Source of the DNA: Blastococcus sp. Marseille-P5729
GTDB lineage: Bacteria; Actinomycetota; Actinomycetes; Mycobacteriales; Antricoccaceae
Direction of reading: 5' to 3'
Length of the DNA stretch: 64,000 nt
NCBI RefSeq assembly: GCF_900292035.1
Contig: NZ_OMPO01000002.1
Span: 806,001 to 870,000, forward strand
Under the pieces are notes generated by a model. That model had not been told where the DNA came from. It worked only from the letters and a program-made list of their open reading frames with translations, and did no database searches. A program made the translations under genes and the position numbers. Below are positions 6,286 through 14,565 of this stretch, piece by piece. Position 1 is the stretch's first letter. Each line of letters begins with the position of its first letter.

Positions 6286-6612
6286 ATGTCTGGGAGTACG
6301 TCGAAGAGGTACCCGGCCGAGCTGCGTGAGCGGGCGGTCCGGATGGTCACCGAGATTCGGGCCGACCACGAGTCGGAATGGGCGGCGATGAGCAAGGTCG
6401 CTGAACTGCTCGGGGTCGGGACGCCGGAGACGGTCCGGAAGTGGTGTCGGCAGGCCGAGGTCGATGCCGGCAGGCGCCCCGGGGTGACCTCGGAGGAGTC
6501 GGCGGAGTTGAAGCGGTTGAAGCGGGAGAACGCCGAGTTGAAGCGGGCCAACGCGATTCTCAAGAGCGCGTCGGTTTTCTTCGCAGCCGAACTCGACCGG
6601 CCACAGCGCTGA
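6286..6612 (+). CDS. IS3-family transposase OrfA
   Basis: This is a 108-residue DNA-binding protein. It has the helix-turn-helix of the transposase_8 family (PAELRERAVRMVTEIRADHE, then VAELLGVGTPETVRKW) and a C-terminal leucine-zipper-like coiled coil (ELKRLKRENAELKRANAILK). It ends with the standard IS3 OrfA tail (FFAAELDRPQR). The string GGTTTTC near 6578-6584 is a candidate slippage site for making the OrfAB fusion. The frame looks intact. Confidence 0.92.
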   Translation: MSGSTSKRYPAELRERAVRMVTEIRADHESEWAAMSKVAELLGVGTPETVRKWCRQAEVDAGRRPGVTSEESAELKRLKRENAELKRANAILKSASVFFAAELDRPQR

Positions 6613-6614
6613 TC

Positions 6615-7565
6615 GTGCGCTACATCGACGAGCACGTCGGTGAGCGCCACGATGACGGTCTGCGATGGGGTGTCGAGTCGATCTGTGCCGCGCTCACCGA
6701 GCTCGGCGCCAAGATCGCCCCCGCGACCTACTACGAGCACCGCCACCGCAAGCCGACCGCCCGCGAGGTGCGCGACGAGGAACTGAAGCCGAAGGTCGCC
6801 GAGGTCCACGCGGCGAACTACGGCGTCTACGGCGCGCGGAAGGTGTGGCTGACGCTCAACCGGGAGCGGGCCGCAGATGCGCCGCCGATCGCGCGCTGCA
6901 CCGTGGAGCGGCTCATGGGTGAGCTCGGCCTGGCCGGCGCGGTGCGGGGCAAGGCCAAGCGCACCACGATCAGCGACCCGAAGGCGCCGAAGCCACTGGA
7001 TCTCGTCGACCGGAGCTTCCGGCCGTTAGCACCCGATCGGCTCTGGGTGGCGGACTTCACCTACTGCTCGACGTGGTCGGGCTGGTGCTACACCGCGTTC
7101 GTGATCGACGCCTACGCCCGGCGGATCCTGGGCTGGTCGGTAGCGACCACGATGACCAGCCAGCTCGTCGTGGACGCCGTTGAACAGGCGATCTGGACCC
7201 GCGGCCGCGAAGGGCGTGACCTGGCCGGACTGGTTGCGCACCATGACCACGGCACGCAGTACCTGTCCGTGGCCTACTCCGAGAAGCTCGACGCCGCCGG
7301 GATCAAGCCTTCGACCGGCGCGGTGGGCTCGTCCTACGACAACGCACTGGCCGAATCGATCATCGGGCTTTACAAGACCGAGCTGGTCAAGAAGCAGCGG
7401 CCGTGGAAGGGCTTCGACGACCTCGAGGTCGCCACCGCTGAATGGGTGGACTGGTACAACCACCGCCGGCCCCACGAGTACTGCGACGACCTCACGCCCG
7501 TCGAGGCAGAGGCCGCTCACTACGCTCACCACGAGACCCCAGCAACCGTTGGAGTCTCAAGCTAG
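6615..7565 (+). CDS. IS3-family transposase OrfB (DDE integrase)
   Basis: This is the catalytic part of the IS3 transposase, about 316 residues when read from the GTG just after the OrfA stop; the frame is open further upstream to 6441, as needed for a -1 frameshift fusion. The DDE residues are in place: WVADFTY (first Asp), AHHDHGTQYLS (second Asp) and NALAESIIGLYKTEL (Glu). A helix-turn-helix-like HTH_21 segment (NYGVYGARKVWLTLNRE) precedes the integrase core. It ends with the usual HRRPHEYCDDLTPVEAE segment. The gene looks intact and potentially active. Confidence 0.92.
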   Translation: MRYIDEHVGERHDDGLRWGVESICAALTELGAKIAPATYYEHRHRKPTAREVRDEELKPKVAEVHAANYGVYGARKVWLTLNRERAADAPPIARCTVERLMGELGLAGAVRGKAKRTTISDPKAPKPLDLVDRSFRPLAPDRLWVADFTYCSTWSGWCYTAFVIDAYARRILGWSVATTMTSQLVVDAVEQAIWTRGREGRDLAGLVAHHDHGTQYLSVAYSEKLDAAGIKPSTGAVGSSYDNALAESIIGLYKTELVKKQRPWKGFDDLEVATAEWVDWYNHRRPHEYCDDLTPVEAEAAHYAHHETPATVGVSS

Positions 7566-7567
7566 AA

Positions 7568-7594
7568 AGTCTCCGGACACGCCGGGGCGGTTCA
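7568..7594 (-). repeat. IS3 right terminal inverted repeat
   Basis: This is the right end of the element, the inverse of 6235-6261 with three mismatches. It begins two bases after the orfB stop codon. Confidence 0.85.
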
Positions 7595-7737
7595 CCCGGG
7601 ACTCGATGTTGCTTACGGCTCGAGCCCAGTCACAGTCCATGGCAGCGCGCACCGGGATTCGGTCTCTACTCAGTCTGGCGCCGACCCGGCCTAGTTTCAA
7701 CTGGCCGAACGAACACGGAAGCTTGTGGTTCTATCAA

Positions 7738-7833
7738 CGCGTGCACGAACCGATCCCGTCGCCCGATCGGGATCCGCACGAGACAGGGCAGGCTGGAGTC
7801 CTCGTCGGGGTTGCGCGCAATCAGCAGCGGCCC
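7738..7833 (-). pseudogene. fragment of an ERCC4-domain nuclease gene (N-terminal end)
   Basis: On the minus strand this stretch encodes PLLIARNPDEDSSLPCLVRIP, nearly identical to the N-terminus of the intact ERCC4 protein encoded at 33412-34245 (PLLIARNPDPASSLPYLVRIP). Similarity stops after about 30 codons and the nuclease core is absent. It lies about 145 bp from the IS3 right end, so it is probably debris of an older copy. Another scrap of the same family is at 24856-24900. Confidence 0.65.
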
Positions 7834-7886
7834 AACCCCATCAGGGTAGGCAGAATGCTCGCCCGCCGTGATCTGGGGCACATGAC

Positions 7887-7915
7887 TTGCCCCTGAAACG
7901 AGGCTCGTTTACTCT
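7887..7915 (+). promoter_or_regulatory. probable housekeeping-sigma promoter of the sulfur operon
   Basis: TTGCCC at 7887-7892 and TACTCT at 7910-7915 are separated by 17 bp. Transcription would begin about 7921, exactly where the SAM-IV aptamer begins. The assignment rests on this spacing and position. Confidence 0.55.
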
Positions 7916-7920
7916 TCAAC

Positions 7921-8050
7921 GAGGTCACGAGAATCGCCGCGAAGCCCTGGCTCGGCGATCGGCAACCCCCGCCTCGTGGTGGGGTGCTCCAGGTGAAGAC
8001 CTGGCCGGATCGCAACAGCGACCGGCAAGTACGAGTTCGCTCACGCGGGT
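7921..8050 (+). promoter_or_regulatory. SAM-IV riboswitch
   Basis: The sequence follows the actinobacterial SAM-IV aptamer closely. It opens with GAGGTCACGAG and continues with GAAGCCCTGGCTCGG, CGGCAACCCCC, GGTGGGGTGCTCC and GGTGAAGACCTGG, ending in a second hairpin with CCGGCAAG near 8022-8029. The closing stem P1 pairs AGGTC (7922-7926) with GACCT (7998-8002). SAM-IV riboswitches turn off sulfur and methionine genes when S-adenosylmethionine is plentiful. The genes downstream are flavin monooxygenases and an ABC importer, so the operon is expected to rise under sulfur or methionine limitation. The 3' boundary is approximate. Confidence 0.9.
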
Positions 8051-8065
8051 TAGGAGAAACCAGCC

Positions 8066-8182
8066 ATGGACGCCACGTCTGGTTTTCGCACCGCCCATTC
8101 ACGACCGATGACCGGTCACGAAGCCGCTTGGCGGCTGTACGTCGATCTGGCGCTCGTCGCCAGCATGCGCTGTTCGCGCTAA
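8066..8182 (+). CDS. putative sulfur-responsive leader peptide (38 aa)
   Basis: A short frame starts at ATG 8066 behind a good AGGAG (8052-8056) and encodes 38 residues ending RLYVDLALVASMRCSR. The RLYVDL...VAS..C ending matches the pattern I recall for actinobacterial putative leader peptides found upstream of sulfate, sulfonate and other sulfur-uptake operons. Such peptides are thought to act through ribosome stalling at cysteine codons; here a single Cys is third from the end. It lies between the SAM-IV riboswitch and the first structural gene (start 8329). No large hairpin was resolved downstream. Function is inferred from motif and position. Confidence 0.7.
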   Translation: MDATSGFRTAHSRPMTGHEAAWRLYVDLALVASMRCSR

Positions 8183-8328
8183 GAGCGCGTTCCGCCCGAC
8201 CTACACACCACACATCACCTCCTGACGGATAGTTCCGTCTCGTCGTAGCCGCCTCGGCAGCTTCGGCGATCTTCCTGCATTCCTTACGCAGCGGTGATGT
8301 GCCTTCCTACCTTGAGGTGCTTCCACGC

Positions 8329-9564
8329 ATGTCCAACAATCCGGCGACCCCGCCGTCCGCTTCCTCCGAACACATCAACCTCTCTGTCGCGCTCGACGGC
8401 GCGGGGTGGCATCCGGCCGCCTGGCGTGAGCCCGGAGCCCGTCCTGCCGACCTGTTCACAACCGCCTACTGGGCAGAGCTCGTCACCGAAGCCGAGCGCG
8501 GCCTGCTCGACTTCGTGACGATCGAGGACTCCCTCGGCATCCAGTCCGACCACTTCGGCGGGCCGCCCGACCACCGCACCGACCAGGTACGCGGGCGCCT
8601 CGACGCCTCGCTGATCGCGGCGGCGCTCGGGCCCATCACCTCCTCGATCGGCCTGGTCCCCACCGTCACCACCACCCACACCGAGCCGTTCCACATCTCC
8701 AAGTCCATCGCCACCCTGGACTTCGCGAGCCGCGGCCGCGCCGGATGGCGGGTGCAGGTCTCCGGCCGCGCCCACGAGGCCGCACACTTCGGCCGCCGCG
8801 ACATCCCCGAGCTCGACCGAAACTGGGCCACCCAGGAGGACTCCCGCCAGGCCATCCGCGAGCTGTTCGACGAGGCGGCCGACTCGATCGAGGTGGTCCG
8901 CCGGCTGTGGGACAGCTGGGAGGACGACGCCGAGATCCGCGACGAGGCGACCGGCCGCTTCATCGACCGCGACAAGCTGCACTACATCGATTTCGAGGGG
9001 TCGAAGTTCAGCGTCAAGGGCCCGTCCATCACACCGCGCCCGCCGCAGGGCCAGCCGGTCGTGACGGCTCTCGCGCACGCCGATATCCCCTACGAGCTGG
9101 CCGCTCGCGGCGCCGACCTGGTCTTCGTCACCCCGCAGGGCATCGACGACGTGCCCGCCCTGATCGGGCAGGTCCGCGCGGCCGAACAAGCGGTCGGCCG
9201 CACCAGTACGCCGCTGCTGATCAACGCAGACCTGCTGGTCGTCCTGGGCGACACCGAGAAGGACGCCCGTGACCGCCTGCGCCGCCTCGACGACACCGCG
9301 GGCGAGAAGCTCCGTTCCGACGCCGCGATCCTCGCGACTACCCCCGACCAGCTGGCAACGCTGCTCGTCGACTGGGCGGACGCCGGGTTGGACGGGTTCC
9401 GGTTGCGACCCGCGGTGCTACCAGACGACCTCGTCGCGATCACCCGCGGCGTCGTCCCCGCTCTCCAGTCGGCCGGCGCGTTCCGCCACACCTACGAGAC
9501 CACCACCCTCCGCGATCATCTCGGGCTCCCCGTAGCGGTCAACCGCTACGCCGCGATCGCCTAA
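8329..9564 (+). CDS. LLM-class flavin-dependent monooxygenase
   Basis: This is a 411-residue bacterial-luciferase-like (LLM) protein, related to the NtaA/SnaA/DszA group that uses reduced FMN to oxidise sulfur or nitrogen compounds. Recognisable segments are DFVTIEDSLGIQ, the beta-strand IGLVPTVTTTHTEPFHISKSIATLDFASRGRAGW, and RLWDSWEDDAE. I chose ATG 8329 (MSNNPATPP) because GAGG lies 11 bp upstream; a GTG at 8299 is also in frame. It is the first structural gene after the riboswitch and leader peptide and lies 19 bp before the next monooxygenase. It probably releases sulfur from an imported organosulfur compound; the substrate is unknown. Confidence 0.88.
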   Translation: MSNNPATPPSASSEHINLSVALDGAGWHPAAWREPGARPADLFTTAYWAELVTEAERGLLDFVTIEDSLGIQSDHFGGPPDHRTDQVRGRLDASLIAAALGPITSSIGLVPTVTTTHTEPFHISKSIATLDFASRGRAGWRVQVSGRAHEAAHFGRRDIPELDRNWATQEDSRQAIRELFDEAADSIEVVRRLWDSWEDDAEIRDEATGRFIDRDKLHYIDFEGSKFSVKGPSITPRPPQGQPVVTALAHADIPYELAARGADLVFVTPQGIDDVPALIGQVRAAEQAVGRTSTPLLINADLLVVLGDTEKDARDRLRRLDDTAGEKLRSDAAILATTPDQLATLLVDWADAGLDGFRLRPAVLPDDLVAITRGVVPALQSAGAFRHTYETTTLRDHLGLPVAVNRYAAIA

Positions 9565-9583: not shown

Positions 9584-10984
9584 ATGAGCACCAGCAATCC
9601 ACGCAAGCAGATCATCCTCGGCGCGCACTTCCCCGGCGTCAACAACTCGACCGTCTGGCGTGATCCGGCGTCGGGCAGCCAGATCGACTTCTCGTCGTTC
9701 GAGCACCTCGCGCGGACCGCCGAGCGCGGCAAGTTCGACTTCTTTTTCCTCGCCGAGGGACTCCGGCTGCGCGAGCAGCGCGGGCTGATCCACGACCTGG
9801 ACGTCGTCGGGAGGCCCGATACGTTCGCCGTCCTCGCGGCACTCTCCTCAGTCACCAAGCATCTCGGCCTGGCCGGCACCATCAACGCGACCTTCAACGA
9901 GCCGTACGAGGTGGCGCGCCAGTTCGCGACCCTGGACCACCTCTCGGCAGGGCGAGCCGCCTGGAACGTCGTCACGAGCTCCGACGCGTTCACCGGCGAG
10001 AACTTCCGCCGCGGCGGATTCCTGCCGCACGCGGAGCGCTACGAGCGGGCGCGGGAGCATGTACAGACCGCGCGCGAGCTCTGGGACTCGTGGGCGCCCG
10101 ACGCCATCGCGGCGGACAAGGAGTCCGGCGCGTTCCTGCGCGACGGCCACGCCGGCGCGTTCGAGCACAACGGTAAGCAGTTCGCCATCTCCGGCCGATT
10201 CAACGTCCCGCGCAGCCCGCAAGGGCATCCAGTCATCCTCCAGGCTGGGGATTCCAGCGACGGCAGGGAATCGGCTGCCCAGTTCGCCGACGCGATCTTC
10301 ACCCGGCACGGGACGCTCGACGAAGGGATCGCGTTCACCAAGGACGTCAAGGCGCGCGCCGTGCGGTACGGCCGCCGGCCCGACGACCTGAAGGTGCTGC
10401 CAGGCGTCGGGTTCATCCTGGGCGACACCGACGCGGAGGCGGCCGAGATCGCTCGCGAGGTGCGGTTCCAGCAGGTGAGCCCGCAGACCGCGATCCTGCT
10501 CCTGGAGCAAGTATGGAACCGGGACCTCTCGTCGTACGACCCCGACGGCCCGCTGCCGGCTGAGGATCCCGACGTCGAGTCGATCTCCATCATCCAGGGA
10601 CGCGCCCGCCAGGTCGACAGCGTGCTCGATACCGCCCGCCGCTACCGAGAGCTCGCCGAGGCCAAGAACCTGAGCATCCGCGAGCTGATCGTCGAGGTGA
10701 CCAGCCGCGGGCTGTTCGTCGGTAGCCCGGCGACCATTGCCGACCAGCTCGACCAGTTCGTTCTCGCCGGGGCCAGCGACGGATTCATCCTCGTCCCGCA
10801 CATCGTCCCGGCGGGGCTGGATCCGTTCGTCGACAAGGTCGTCCCGCTCCTGCAGGAGCGCGGCGCCCTTCGCGCGGACTACACCCCCGGCGCCACCCTG
10901 CGCGACAACCTCGGTCTGCCCGCGGCCACCCCCGCGGAGCGCTGGTCGGCGCTGGCCAACGATCCCGCGGCCGCCGCGTCGTGA
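9584..10984 (+). CDS. NtaA/DszA-family FMN-dependent monooxygenase
   Basis: This 466-residue LLM-family monooxygenase has the typical length and motifs of the NtaA/SnaA/SoxA/DszA branch: an N-terminal QIILGAHFPGVN, KFDFFFLAEGLRLRE, RQFATLDHLSAGRAAWNVVTS, and HPVILQAGDSSDGRESAAQFAD. Members oxidise compounds such as nitrilotriacetate, dibenzothiophene sulfone or dimethylsulfone using FMNH2 from a partner reductase. The start has AAGGGAA upstream at 9566-9572. It follows the 8329 gene and overlaps the upstream extension of the SBP frame. Placement in a SAM-IV-controlled operon argues for organosulfur oxidation. Confidence 0.88.
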   Translation: MSTSNPRKQIILGAHFPGVNNSTVWRDPASGSQIDFSSFEHLARTAERGKFDFFFLAEGLRLREQRGLIHDLDVVGRPDTFAVLAALSSVTKHLGLAGTINATFNEPYEVARQFATLDHLSAGRAAWNVVTSSDAFTGENFRRGGFLPHAERYERAREHVQTARELWDSWAPDAIAADKESGAFLRDGHAGAFEHNGKQFAISGRFNVPRSPQGHPVILQAGDSSDGRESAAQFADAIFTRHGTLDEGIAFTKDVKARAVRYGRRPDDLKVLPGVGFILGDTDAEAAEIAREVRFQQVSPQTAILLLEQVWNRDLSSYDPDGPLPAEDPDVESISIIQGRARQVDSVLDTARRYRELAEAKNLSIRELIVEVTSRGLFVGSPATIADQLDQFVLAGASDGFILVPHIVPAGLDPFVDKVVPLLQERGALRADYTPGATLRDNLGLPAATPAERWSALANDPAAAAS

Positions 10985-12669: not shown

Positions 12670-12676
12670 TGCGCCG

Positions 12677-13636
12677 ATGACCAGGTACCTCCTTCGTCGG
12701 GTCGCCCTCGCGGTCGGCGTGCTCTGGGCAGCGTTCACGGTGTCGTTCGTCGTGCTCTACCTGATCCCGGGCGACGCCGTCGACGCGATGGTCTCCGCCC
12801 AGGAAGTACCGCCTTCGGCAGCCGAGCTCGCCCAGCTGCGCGCACAGTACGGGGTCGACGAACCGTTGATCGTGCAGTACGGCGAACGGCTGTGGGCCGC
12901 GCTGCAGGGTGACTTCGGCGACTCGATCCAGACCGGCCGTTCGGTGACGTCGTCGATTGTCGACGCGCTTCCGAGCACGGCCGTGCTGGCTGGTGCCGCG
13001 CTGCTGCTGGCGATCCTCGGCGGCGGCCTGCTCGCCATCGTCGCCACGGCGACCGAGTCGCGGTGGGCGCGCCAGTTCCTCCTGGCGCTCCCGCCGCTGG
13101 CGGTCTCGCTCCCGACGTTCTGGGTCGGGCTCGTGCTGATCCAGGTGTTCAGCTTCCAGCTCGGCCTGTTCCCGTCGATCGGCGGCACCGGTCTGAATGC
13201 GCTGGTGCTGCCGGCAGTGACACTGGCGCTGCCGATCGGCGCCGTGATCGCCCAGATACTCGCAAAGTCGCTGAGCACCGCGCTCGACGACGCCTACGTG
13301 ACGACTGCTCGCGCGAAGGGGGTGAGCAGGGCCGGCATCCACTTCACGCACGCGCTGCGCAACGCCGCGTTGCCTGCGCTCACCGCCGTCGGCCTGCTGG
13401 TCGGGCAGCTGCTGGCCGGCTCAGTCGTGGTCGAGACCGTGTTCGCCAGGGCTGGGGTCGGCCGGCTCACCGTTCAGGGCGTCACGGCCCAGGACATTCC
13501 CCTCGTACAAGGAATCGTGGTGTTCGGCGCACTGGTGTTCGTAGCCACGAACCTGATCGTCGACCTGATCTACCCCGTGCTCGATCCCCGGATCACGGCG
13601 ACCAGCACCGCGACGCCGAGAAAGGTACCCGCATGA
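12677..13636 (+). CDS. ABC transporter permease, DppB type
   Basis: This 319-residue integral membrane protein has about six transmembrane segments. It starts MTRYLLRRVALAVGVLWAAF, the standard DppB/OppB opening, and continues with YLIPGDAVDAMVS, a conserved early segment of the family. The EAA-like cytoplasmic loop appears in DDAYVTTARAKGVSRAGIHFTHALRNA. The first in-frame ATG after the SBP stop is used (gap 7 bp). Its end overlaps the next permease start by ATGA. It forms the channel together with the DppC-type protein. Confidence 0.92.
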   Translation: MTRYLLRRVALAVGVLWAAFTVSFVVLYLIPGDAVDAMVSAQEVPPSAAELAQLRAQYGVDEPLIVQYGERLWAALQGDFGDSIQTGRSVTSSIVDALPSTAVLAGAALLLAILGGGLLAIVATATESRWARQFLLALPPLAVSLPTFWVGLVLIQVFSFQLGLFPSIGGTGLNALVLPAVTLALPIGAVIAQILAKSLSTALDDAYVTTARAKGVSRAGIHFTHALRNAALPALTAVGLLVGQLLAGSVVVETVFARAGVGRLTVQGVTAQDIPLVQGIVVFGALVFVATNLIVDLIYPVLDPRITATSTATPRKVPA

Positions 13637-14565
13637 CCGAGCTCGCCACCGCCACCCTCGTGCGGGACGTCGAACCGCCTGAGGTCACGGCCCCGCCGAG
13701 CACAGTGGTGGCGGCGGCGGACCCCACCGACCGTCGGCGCGGCCTACCCCGTTGGCTCCGGTTCGCGCTGGCCCGACCGGGCCTGATCATCAGCGTCGTC
13801 TTCCTCGCGCTGGTGCTCATCGCCTGCTTCGCCCCTTCCCTTCTAGCCTCGGGAAACCCGCTGACCGGGGAGCCGGCGGACCATCTCAAGGCACCGAGCC
13901 CGGCCCACCTGTTCGGAACCGATCACCTGGGTCGCGACGTGTTCACGCGGGTCGTGCACGGCACCTCGCTGTCGCTGCGATCGGCGCTGGTCGCCGTCAC
14001 GATCGCGCTCATCGTCGGCGGCCTGATGGGCCTCATCGCCGGAACCCTGGGCCGGTGGGTCGACGATGCGATCATGCGCTTCGTCGACGTCCTGCTCGCC
14101 ATCCCGGCGCTTCTGCTGTCGCTGGCGCTCATCACCGCCCTCGGCTACGGCACCGTGAACGTCGCGATCGCCGTGGCGATCGGCTCAATCGCCACGTTCG
14201 CGCGGATCGCTCGTTCGGAGACGTTGCGCGTGTCACGGGCGACGTACGTGGAGGCCGCGCGCTCCGTCGGATCACGGCCGTGGACGACGCTGCGGAGGCA
14301 CATCCTGCCCAACGCGATCGGCCCGATCCTCGCTCTCGCCGTGCTCGAGTTCGGCGTGGCCATCCTCGCGGTCGCATCGCTGAGCTTCCTGGGCTACGGC
14401 GCTCCCCCGCCGACGCCCGAATGGGGATCGATGGTCGCCGAGGGCCGCAACTACCTGGCCACCTCATGGTGGCTGACCACCTTGCCCGGCCTGACTGTCG
14501 CGGCGACCGTGCTCGCGGTGAACAGGGTGTCGCGGGCCCTCGACGGCGAATGGACGCGTGCGTGA
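13633..14565 (+). CDS. ABC transporter permease, DppC type
   Basis: This 310-residue membrane protein has a DppC/OppC N-terminal domain (PGLIISVVFLALVLIACFAP), the family motif HLFGTDHLGRDVFTRVVHG and an EAA loop (SRATYVEAARSVGSRPWTTLRRHILPN). It overlaps the upstream permease by 4 bp and touches the ATPase start by 1 bp (TGATG at 14563-14567). The N-terminus carries about 45 extra polar residues before the first membrane segment, which is common in this branch. Confidence 0.92.
   Translation: MTELATATLVRDVEPPEVTAPPSTVVAAADPTDRRRGLPRWLRFALARPGLIISVVFLALVLIACFAPSLLASGNPLTGEPADHLKAPSPAHLFGTDHLGRDVFTRVVHGTSLSLRSALVAVTIALIVGGLMGLIAGTLGRWVDDAIMRFVDVLLAIPALLLSLALITALGYGTVNVAIAVAIGSIATFARIARSETLRVSRATYVEAARSVGSRPWTTLRRHILPNAIGPILALAVLEFGVAILAVASLSFLGYGAPPPTPEWGSMVAEGRNYLATSWWLTTLPGLTVAATVLAVNRVSRALDGEWTRA

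What the first reader, a model, noticed from the sequence alone, without database searches (positions are those of the whole stretch)
7887..8328. Stacked control: SAM-IV riboswitch followed by a cysteine-type leader peptide
One 440-bp leader carries a promoter, a clear SAM-IV aptamer and then a 38-aa frame ending RLYVDLALVASMRCSR with a good RBS. Such peptides are usually reported on their own. Together they could sense both S-adenosylmethionine and cysteine (or ribosome stalling) in front of an organosulfur operon.
Basis: partly seen in the sequence, partly recalled or inferred. Interest (0 to 1): 0.75.

Follow-up and report, generated by a model that had tools for sequence, protein, structure and literature searches.

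The report
SAM riboswitch stacked on cysteine leader
In front of a sulfur-scavenging operon, an RNA sensor for S-adenosylmethionine is followed by a tiny gene whose translation probably stalls when cysteine runs short; the same two-sensor arrangement recurs in dozens of other actinobacterial leaders, suggesting a common two-input sulfur switch that I did not find described.

Summary
A SAM-IV aptamer (Rfam RF00634, 93.3 bits, cut-off 38) lies at 7923-8037. A 38-codon ORF (8066-8182) ending RLYVDLALVASMRCSR starts 28 nt later, before a two-monooxygenase/ABC-transporter operon. The ORF is real: its tract HEAAWRLYVDLxLVASMRC varies at one residue among three congeners. It is no isolated case. Of 170 SAM-IV aptamers sampled in its order, 69 are followed by a short Cys ORF (shuffles 3.6, antisense 3, TPP-riboswitch control 0/30). 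A strict R-x-x-[VIL]-D-[LF]-x(6-9)-C rule, applied afterwards to Streptomycetaceae, gives 24/73 (shuffles about 0). The uORF occupies the place, about 34 nt after the aptamer, where genes start in simple SAM-IV loci. The Cys codon at D+9 is UGU in 49/50 uORFs although UGU is about 3% of Cys codons there. In one congener the same promoter, peptide and operon exist without the aptamer, so the parts are separable. Best reading: low SAM permits uORF translation, low Cys stalls the ribosome at UGU, and only both together give full expression. SAM gating and the final step (Rho or RNA fold) are inferred. Known parts, in a recurrent serial arrangement for which I found no prior report.

The parts
7887..7915 (+). 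candidate promoter: TTGCCC (7887-7892), 17-nt spacer, TACTCT (7910-7915); expected start about 7921-7923
   Evidence: conserved as TTGnnn-17-TA(C/G)T(C/G)T in both congeners; not flagged by the sigma-70 scan
7923..8037 (+). SAM-IV riboswitch aptamer
   Evidence: RF00634 93.3 bits, cut-off 38; G000:C2:813923-814037
7973..7977 (+). P3-loop side (CUCGU) of the candidate aptamer pseudoknot
   Evidence: pairs with 8031-8035; CUCGC/GCGAG in L011 is a compensatory change (sequences)
8031..8035 (+). 3' tail side (ACGAG) of the candidate pseudoknot
   Evidence: sequences
8052..8056 (+). Shine-Dalgarno AGGAG of the leader ORF
   Evidence: sequence; AGGAG kept in L011 and in L234
8066..8182 (+). leader ORF, 38 codons, diverged R-x-H-V-D-L-x-R-V-x-S-A-L-C leader peptide
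8171..8173 (+). UGU cysteine codon, 9 residues after the motif Asp; proposed stall site
   Evidence: UGU at this position in 49/50 uORFs of the order and 13/13 leaders without SAM-IV, 24/24 in Streptomycetaceae
8175..8189 (+). hairpin CGCGCU-AAG-AGCGCG overlapping the uORF stop codon (UAA 8180-8182)
   Evidence: sequence identical and folded alike in L011, not kept in L234
8211..8219 (+). 5' arm of a long-range helix closing the leader spacer
   Evidence: CACAUC/GAUGUG core invariant in three congeners and in all three predicted folds
8293..8301 (+). 3' arm of the same helix (GGUGAUGUG)
8314..8319 (+). candidate Shine-Dalgarno GAGGTG of the first operon gene
   Evidence: sequence; start ATG 8329 agrees with homologues, which align from residue 1-16
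8329..9564 (+). luciferase-like monooxygenase, NtaA/DmoA type
   Evidence: PF00296; TIGR03860 270.4 bits, just under its 279.7 cut-off
9584..10984 (+). second NtaA/DmoA-type monooxygenase
   Evidence: PF00296, TIGR03860 422.5 bits
11047..12669 (+). ABC transporter substrate-binding lipoprotein, family 5
   Evidence: PF00496
12671..16214 (+). ABC transporter: two permeases (12671-13636, 13633-14565) and a two-domain ATPase (from about 14571)
   Evidence: PF00528, PF00005

Best explanation
This leader is a two-input control element in which a SAM-IV riboswitch and a cysteine-sensing leader peptide act in series. Transcription starts at the aptamer. The first ORF after the aptamer is the 38-codon leader ORF, so the riboswitch most likely acts on its translation: when SAM is plentiful the leader ORF is not translated and the operon stays off. 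When SAM is low, ribosomes translate it. If charged tRNA-Cys is plentiful they finish and leave, and the operon stays low. If it is scarce they stall at the near-invariant UGU codon (8171-8173), and the stalled ribosome allows expression of the organosulfur monooxygenase/transporter operon. The logic is NOT SAM AND uncharged tRNA-Cys. The last step is probably prevention of Rho-dependent termination in the C-rich spacer, with release of the structured spacer (helix 8211-8219/8293-8301) as the alternative. Shown: the parts, their conservation, recurrence of the pair, and the codon choice. Inferred: SAM gating of the leader ORF, stalling, and the output step.
For: (1) Aptamer intact by Rfam score. 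(2) Leader ORF under selection as a peptide in three congeners. (3) The pair recurs: 69/170 SAM-IV loci against 3.6 in shuffles and 3 antisense. Strict motif: 50/170 and 24/73 against about 0.1 in shuffles. TPP-riboswitch control 0/30. (4) Leader-ORF starts cluster 30-38 nt after the aptamer, close to gene starts in simple loci (median 40 nt); a gene more than 100 nt away goes with a leader ORF (60/80 against 1/67, Fisher 2e-22). (5) By gene class: monooxygenase LLM1 13/17, permease type 13/14, metY 11/40, aminotransferase-V 1/40. (6) Cys codon UGU in 49/50 although UGU is about 3% of Cys codons in those genes; other Cys codons of the same ORFs 9/43 UGU. (7) Own genome has a canonical relative of the peptide before a cysE-like gene, without SAM-IV. 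(8) The first 78 nt after the leader ORF are C-rich and G-poor (C-G +0.18, against -0.01 upstream, p 2e-13), as expected of Rho loading sites.
Against: Secondary-structure modelling does not show the Shine-Dalgarno masked when P1 is formed, though pseudoknots were not modelled. No family-wide pairing between leader-ORF end, spacer and gene RBS was found, so the output step is open. The peptide has one Cys, not a run. In some Streptomyces leaders a stop codon or another residue replaces the Cys, so charging of tRNA-Cys cannot be the whole story for the family. No expression data.
Confidence: 0.68

Rival explanations
1. Both elements work but in parallel: SAM-IV controls the operon by its own platform, independently of the leader ORF, and the leader ORF is a separate Cys attenuator.
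For: The elements occur alone elsewhere: leader without SAM-IV in G003, before a cysE-like gene in the own genome, and before Streptomyces, Frankia and Pseudonocardia orthologues; SAM-IV alone before metY and aminotransferase genes.
Against: Only 14 nt lie between aptamer and leader RBS and no terminator-like site is on that strand there; the leader ORF sits where the regulated gene starts in simple loci.
Confidence: 0.17
2. The peptide is an arrest peptide whose nascent chain senses a small molecule or a slow UGU/stop codon, rather than a plain monitor of tRNA-Cys charging. (This concerns the peptide only and is partly compatible with the best explanation.)
For: Fourteen-residue motif with fixed D-to-C distance (48/50); codon-level invariance of UGU and bias of neighbouring AGC-GCG-CTC codons; Streptomyces variants RRLHIDLLRVSSAY-stop keep the motif without Cys.
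Against: Gene contexts (cysE-like, metY, sulfur transport) and poly-Cys relatives in equivalent positions point to Cys itself.
Confidence: 0.3
3. The leader ORF is not translated; the conserved tract is a structural RNA or protein-binding site.
For: The last 21 nt up to UGU are identical in three congeners including synonymous sites, and neighbouring codons are biased in the family.
Against: Across the family the Asp codon is GAC 30/GAT 22 and Arg codons vary while amino acids are kept; start, frame and stop are kept in L011, and the frame and C-terminus in L234; antisense and shuffle controls are near zero.
Confidence: 0.04
4. Only one element is active at this locus: the aptamer is decaying (it is missing in G003), or the diverged peptide no longer stalls.
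For: G003 lacks any SAM-IV but keeps the operon and leader; own peptide deviates from the consensus (LYVDLALVASMRC instead of RHVDLQRVSSALC).
Against: 93.3-bit aptamer with a compensated pseudoknot pair; peptide tract conserved in all three congeners.
Confidence: 0.12

Closest known systems
SAM-IV riboswitch (Rfam RF00634)
   Same: Aptamer scores as a full-length member; upstream of sulfur genes.
   Different: Usually noted directly as the element of an enzyme gene (for example O-acetylhomoserine sulfhydrylase in M. avium, PMC3774663); here the next ORF is a leader peptide.
NCBIfam NF042934 'putative leader peptide' (cis_reg_atten) and the Ms4527A/Ms5788A Cys-rich leader families
   Same: Motif Arg-x-x-Val-Asp-Leu...Cys with Cys near the C-terminus; tandem uORFs L012 (29.3 bits) and L153 (34.4 bits) exceed the 27-bit cut-off, as does the own-genome cysE-type leader (36.1).
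   Different: The window peptide and its two congener orthologues give no hit; it follows a riboswitch.
Polycysteine leaderless short ORFs of mycobacteria (Canestrari et al. 2020, doi 10.1111/mmi.14498; text not held, content from memory)
   Same: Cys codons in a short upstream ORF; stalled ribosome changes access to the downstream gene.
   Different: Those ORFs are leaderless and carry Cys runs; here the ORF has an RBS, one Cys, and a SAM aptamer in front.
SAM-I/T-box(Met) tandems (PMC9481103)
   Same: SAM aptamer in series with a sensor of tRNA charging; NOT A AND B logic; before metX/metY.
   Different: T-box RNA instead of a translated peptide, methionine instead of cysteine, 7 examples listed in that order.
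Riboswitch-controlled uORFs of M. tuberculosis: B12/ppe2 (PMC11260477) and Mbox/pe20 with Rho-dependent termination (PMC12810186)
   Same: A riboswitch acts on a translated short ORF rather than directly on the gene; Rho in the Mbox case.
   Different: Neither abstract nor the passages found present the ORF as a sensor of a second metabolite.

Membership tests
SAM-IV riboswitch RF00634 | covariance-model score above 38 bits over the full model | tested here: met
   93.3 bits, positions 1-116
SAM-IV riboswitch RF00634 | loop-tail pseudoknot | tested here: met
   CUCGU/ACGAG in window, CUCGC/GCGAG in L011, compensatory; two sequences only, read by eye
SAM-IV riboswitch RF00634 | binds SAM | not testable with these tools
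   needs in-line probing or ITC
NF042934 leader peptide | profile score above 27 bits | tested here: not met
   no hit for the window peptide or its orthologues
NF042934-like leader peptide (works like) | R-x-x-V-D-L motif with Cys 9 residues after Asp | tested here: met
   R-L-Y-V-D-L-A-L-V-A-S-M-R-C; profile built from other loci scores it 14.9 bits, above all 5000 shuffles of itself (best 13.9)
NF042934-like leader peptide (works like) | UGU codon at the Cys | tested here: met
   TGT 8171-8173, also in L011 and L234
Polycysteine leaderless short ORF | leaderless start and run of Cys codons | tested here: not met
   RBS AGGAG and aptamer in front; one Cys
Rho-dependent attenuator | C-rich, G-poor unstructured loading site | tested here: inconclusive
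   family spacers C-rich; own spacer is strongly folded (z -3.75)
Classical hairpin attenuator | leader-ORF end pairs with spacer, spacer pairs with RBS or terminator | tested here: not met
   no excess pairing in 38 loci (mean z -0.04 and +0.33); no + strand terminator-like site at 7500-8700

The most novel reading that the evidence does not exclude
Actinobacteria use a widespread, modular two-input RNA gate for sulfur scavenging: a SAM riboswitch controls whether a leader ORF is translated, and a codon- and nascent-chain-dependent stall at one invariant UGU codon in that ORF reads cysteine, so that operons open only when both SAM and cysteine are low. It would be a common natural case of a riboswitch gating a ribosome-stalling sensor.
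Probability: 0.45. Interest if true: 0.85.

Novelty: new variant of a known kind. Interest (0 to 1): 0.77.

Why it matters
It links two separately known sensors into one circuit that recurs in many sulfur operons of two large actinobacterial groups, including a poly-Cys form before metY in Mycobacterium-type genomes. It makes directly testable how a riboswitch and a ribosome-based sensor combine. The near-invariant rare UGU codon gives a one-base handle: a synonymous UGU-to-UGC change predicts altered sensitivity without changing the peptide. The natural absence of the aptamer in a congener is a ready-made control.

Tried and rejected
Family-wide classical attenuation (leader-ORF end with spacer, spacer with RBS): no excess pairing in 38 loci. 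Masking of the Shine-Dalgarno by P1 formation: not seen in secondary-structure models. An anti-SD CACCTCC in the own spacer: absent in L011 and L234, so dropped. Pairing of uORF AGCAUGCG with the gene start CGCAUG: weaker in L011, dropped (sequence comparison). The sigma-70 scan found no promoter. A gapped pattern search in 395 genomes was badly specified, did not even match the window, and is void. Canestrari 2020, D'Halluin 2023 and Weinberg 2008 are not held.

Full report
CHECK OF THE OBSERVATION. The Rfam scan of the whole window gives one hit above threshold, SAM-IV RF00634 at 7923-8037, 93.3 bits against 38. The leader ORF 8066-8182 reads MDATSGFRTAHSRPMTGHEAAWRLYVDLALVASMRCSR, with AGGAG at 8052-8056. 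A start at 7921-7923, exactly before the aptamer, is therefore likely. The operon behind it has two NtaA/DmoA-type luciferase-like monooxygenases, a family-5 binding protein, two permeases and a two-domain ATPase.

CONSERVATION IN THE GENUS. The own genome (G000, 3.33 Mb) holds five SAM-IV elements. The orthologous leader in G002 (L011, 98.5 bits) keeps aptamer and peptide: 7 synonymous and 6 non-synonymous codon differences, with only synonymous ones from residue 17 to the Cys. The candidate pseudoknot has changed on both sides, CUCGU/ACGAG to CUCGC/GCGAG. G003, same genus, has no SAM-IV match at all, yet it has the same operon at 78% identity, the same promoter, and the peptide MRTVHSVISAAPTHNQQNMTDHEAAWRLYVDLGLVASMRCRP with UGU. 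The aptamer is simply absent between promoter and ORF. The two sensors are separable modules.

RECURRENCE. Among 170 SAM-IV loci drawn from the order, 69 have a short ORF within 140 nt ending in a V-D-L...C motif or in clustered Cys. Dinucleotide shuffles give 3.6 +/- 1.7 and the antisense strand 3. The rule was set after seeing examples, and 28 genomes were chosen mainly because they carry several SAM-IV copies, so the fraction is not an unbiased estimate, and related genomes are not independent. As checks: TPP-riboswitch loci of 18 of the same genomes give 0/30. A stricter rule applied afterwards to Streptomycetaceae gives 24/73 against 0-1 in shuffles, and to the order sample 50/170 against 0-1. 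Named examples include Streptomyces sp. NBC_00620 (L073, both strands) and Nakamurella leprariae (G121, identified by its contig length 223203). The split by gene is sharp: monooxygenase 13/17, permease type 13/14, metY 11/40, and 1/40 for the aminotransferase-V gene, which serves as an internal negative control. Where the homology-assigned gene lies more than 100 nt from the aptamer, a Cys uORF is present in 60 of 80; where it is nearer, in 1 of 67 (Fisher 2e-22). The motif-type uORF starts 30-38 nt (quartiles) after the aptamer; simple genes start at a median of 40 nt. The uORF has taken the place of the regulated gene's start. This is the main argument that the riboswitch acts on it.

THE PEPTIDE. 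The consensus of 50 uORFs is R-[R]-H-[IV]-D-L-x-R-V-x-S-A-L-C with Cys nine residues after Asp in 48. The window peptide has R, V, D, L, V, S and C in register. A profile of the others ranks it above all 5000 of its shuffles, narrowly (14.9 against 13.9 bits); NCBIfam NF042934 does not detect it although it detects tandem uORFs such as L012 and L153. I therefore call it a diverged relative that works alike, not a scored member. The own genome has a canonical copy, VTAVAFETAYRRRHVDLLRVSSALCR, without SAM-IV, before what reads as a serine acetyltransferase (cysE-like) gene (the gene name is from inspection of its sequence, not from a family search), which ties the family to cysteine.

THE CODON. 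The Cys codon is UGU in 49 of 50 uORFs, while UGU is about 3% of Cys codons in the genes of these loci and 13% in all genes sampled. Other Cys codons of the same uORFs are UGU in 9 of 43. Leaders without SAM-IV have it in 13 of 13, Streptomycetaceae tandems in 24 of 24 distinct loci. The neighbouring Ser AGC, Ala GCG and Leu CTC are also biased. So codon or nucleotide identity at the stall site is selected, not only the residue. My inference is slower decoding by wobble at UGU; a role in RNA structure is not excluded. Streptomyces-type leaders L073(-), L069(-) and L362 end RRLHIDLLRVSSAY-stop, and L355 and L363 have no Cys at that position, with the motif intact; this favours a contribution of the nascent chain.

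OUTPUT STEP. Spacers after the uORF are C-rich and G-poor (C-G +0.18 against -0.01 upstream of the aptamers, p 2e-13), as expected of Rho loading. No family-wide pairing supports hairpin attenuation. The own spacer is unusual: it folds strongly (z -3.75) into a branched structure closed by CACAUCACC/GGUGAUGUG, a helix whose CACAUC/GAUGUG core is kept in all three congeners. Which of the two matters here is open.

RELATION TO KNOWN SYSTEMS. Riboswitch-controlled uORFs are known in M. tuberculosis for B12 (PMC11260477) and Mbox with Rho (PMC12810186). SAM-I/T-box(Met) tandems with equivalent logic are known in few copies (PMC9481103, where the word peptide does not occur). Cys-codon leader peptides in Actinobacteria were predicted in 2005 (PMC1262725). 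No paper in the held library contains SAM-IV, uORF and Mycobacterium together, and three relevant papers were not held, so absence of a prior report is not proven.

VERDICT. The finding is real and more general than stated. Architecture: near certain. Cys sensing at UGU: likely. SAM gating of the uORF: probable, from position only. Output mechanism: undecided.

Noticed in passing
L004 (G000:C1, SAM-IV at 1153419-1153534, minus): A second tandem in the own genome: SAM-IV followed by a candidate ORF ending RMCCCR (no clear RBS), then a substrate-binding lipoprotein gene at +258; L017 in G004 has the equivalent with ...TRCCCPLTR.
   Followed up: partly
L002 (G000:C1, SAM-IV at 1260010-1260125, minus): SAM-IV followed at +24 by a 23-codon ORF ...RRFTIDYGRLRTTCS with a strong RBS and a UGU Cys codon, gene only at +413: possibly a further degenerate leader.
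   Followed up: partly
L073 minus strand (SAM-IV 2226-2371), L069 minus strand (1789-1934), L362: Streptomyces-type leaders where the Cys codon is replaced by a stop: RRLHIDLLRVSSAY-stop directly behind SAM-IV.
   Followed up: partly
L364 (G000:C2:690349-690390, minus): Canonical leader peptide VTAVAFETAYRRRHVDLLRVSSALCR without SAM-IV upstream of a cysE-like gene in the own genome.
   Followed up: yes
window 6286-7565: Transposase pair with HTH_Tnp_1 and integrase-core domains (IS3-like) directly upstream of the leader's promoter region.
   Followed up: no
L152-L159, L164: Sulfur gene regions in Nakamurella-type and related genomes carry several SAM-IV elements within 20 kb, often divergent pairs about 150-350 nt apart, many with their own leader peptide.
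   Followed up: partly
L005 and L014: SAM-IV directly before small genes of unknown function with related sequence (GYRMHFIHGRQLGETWWGWRD / GHTMHWVHAKQVGKTPWGWRD).
   Followed up: no
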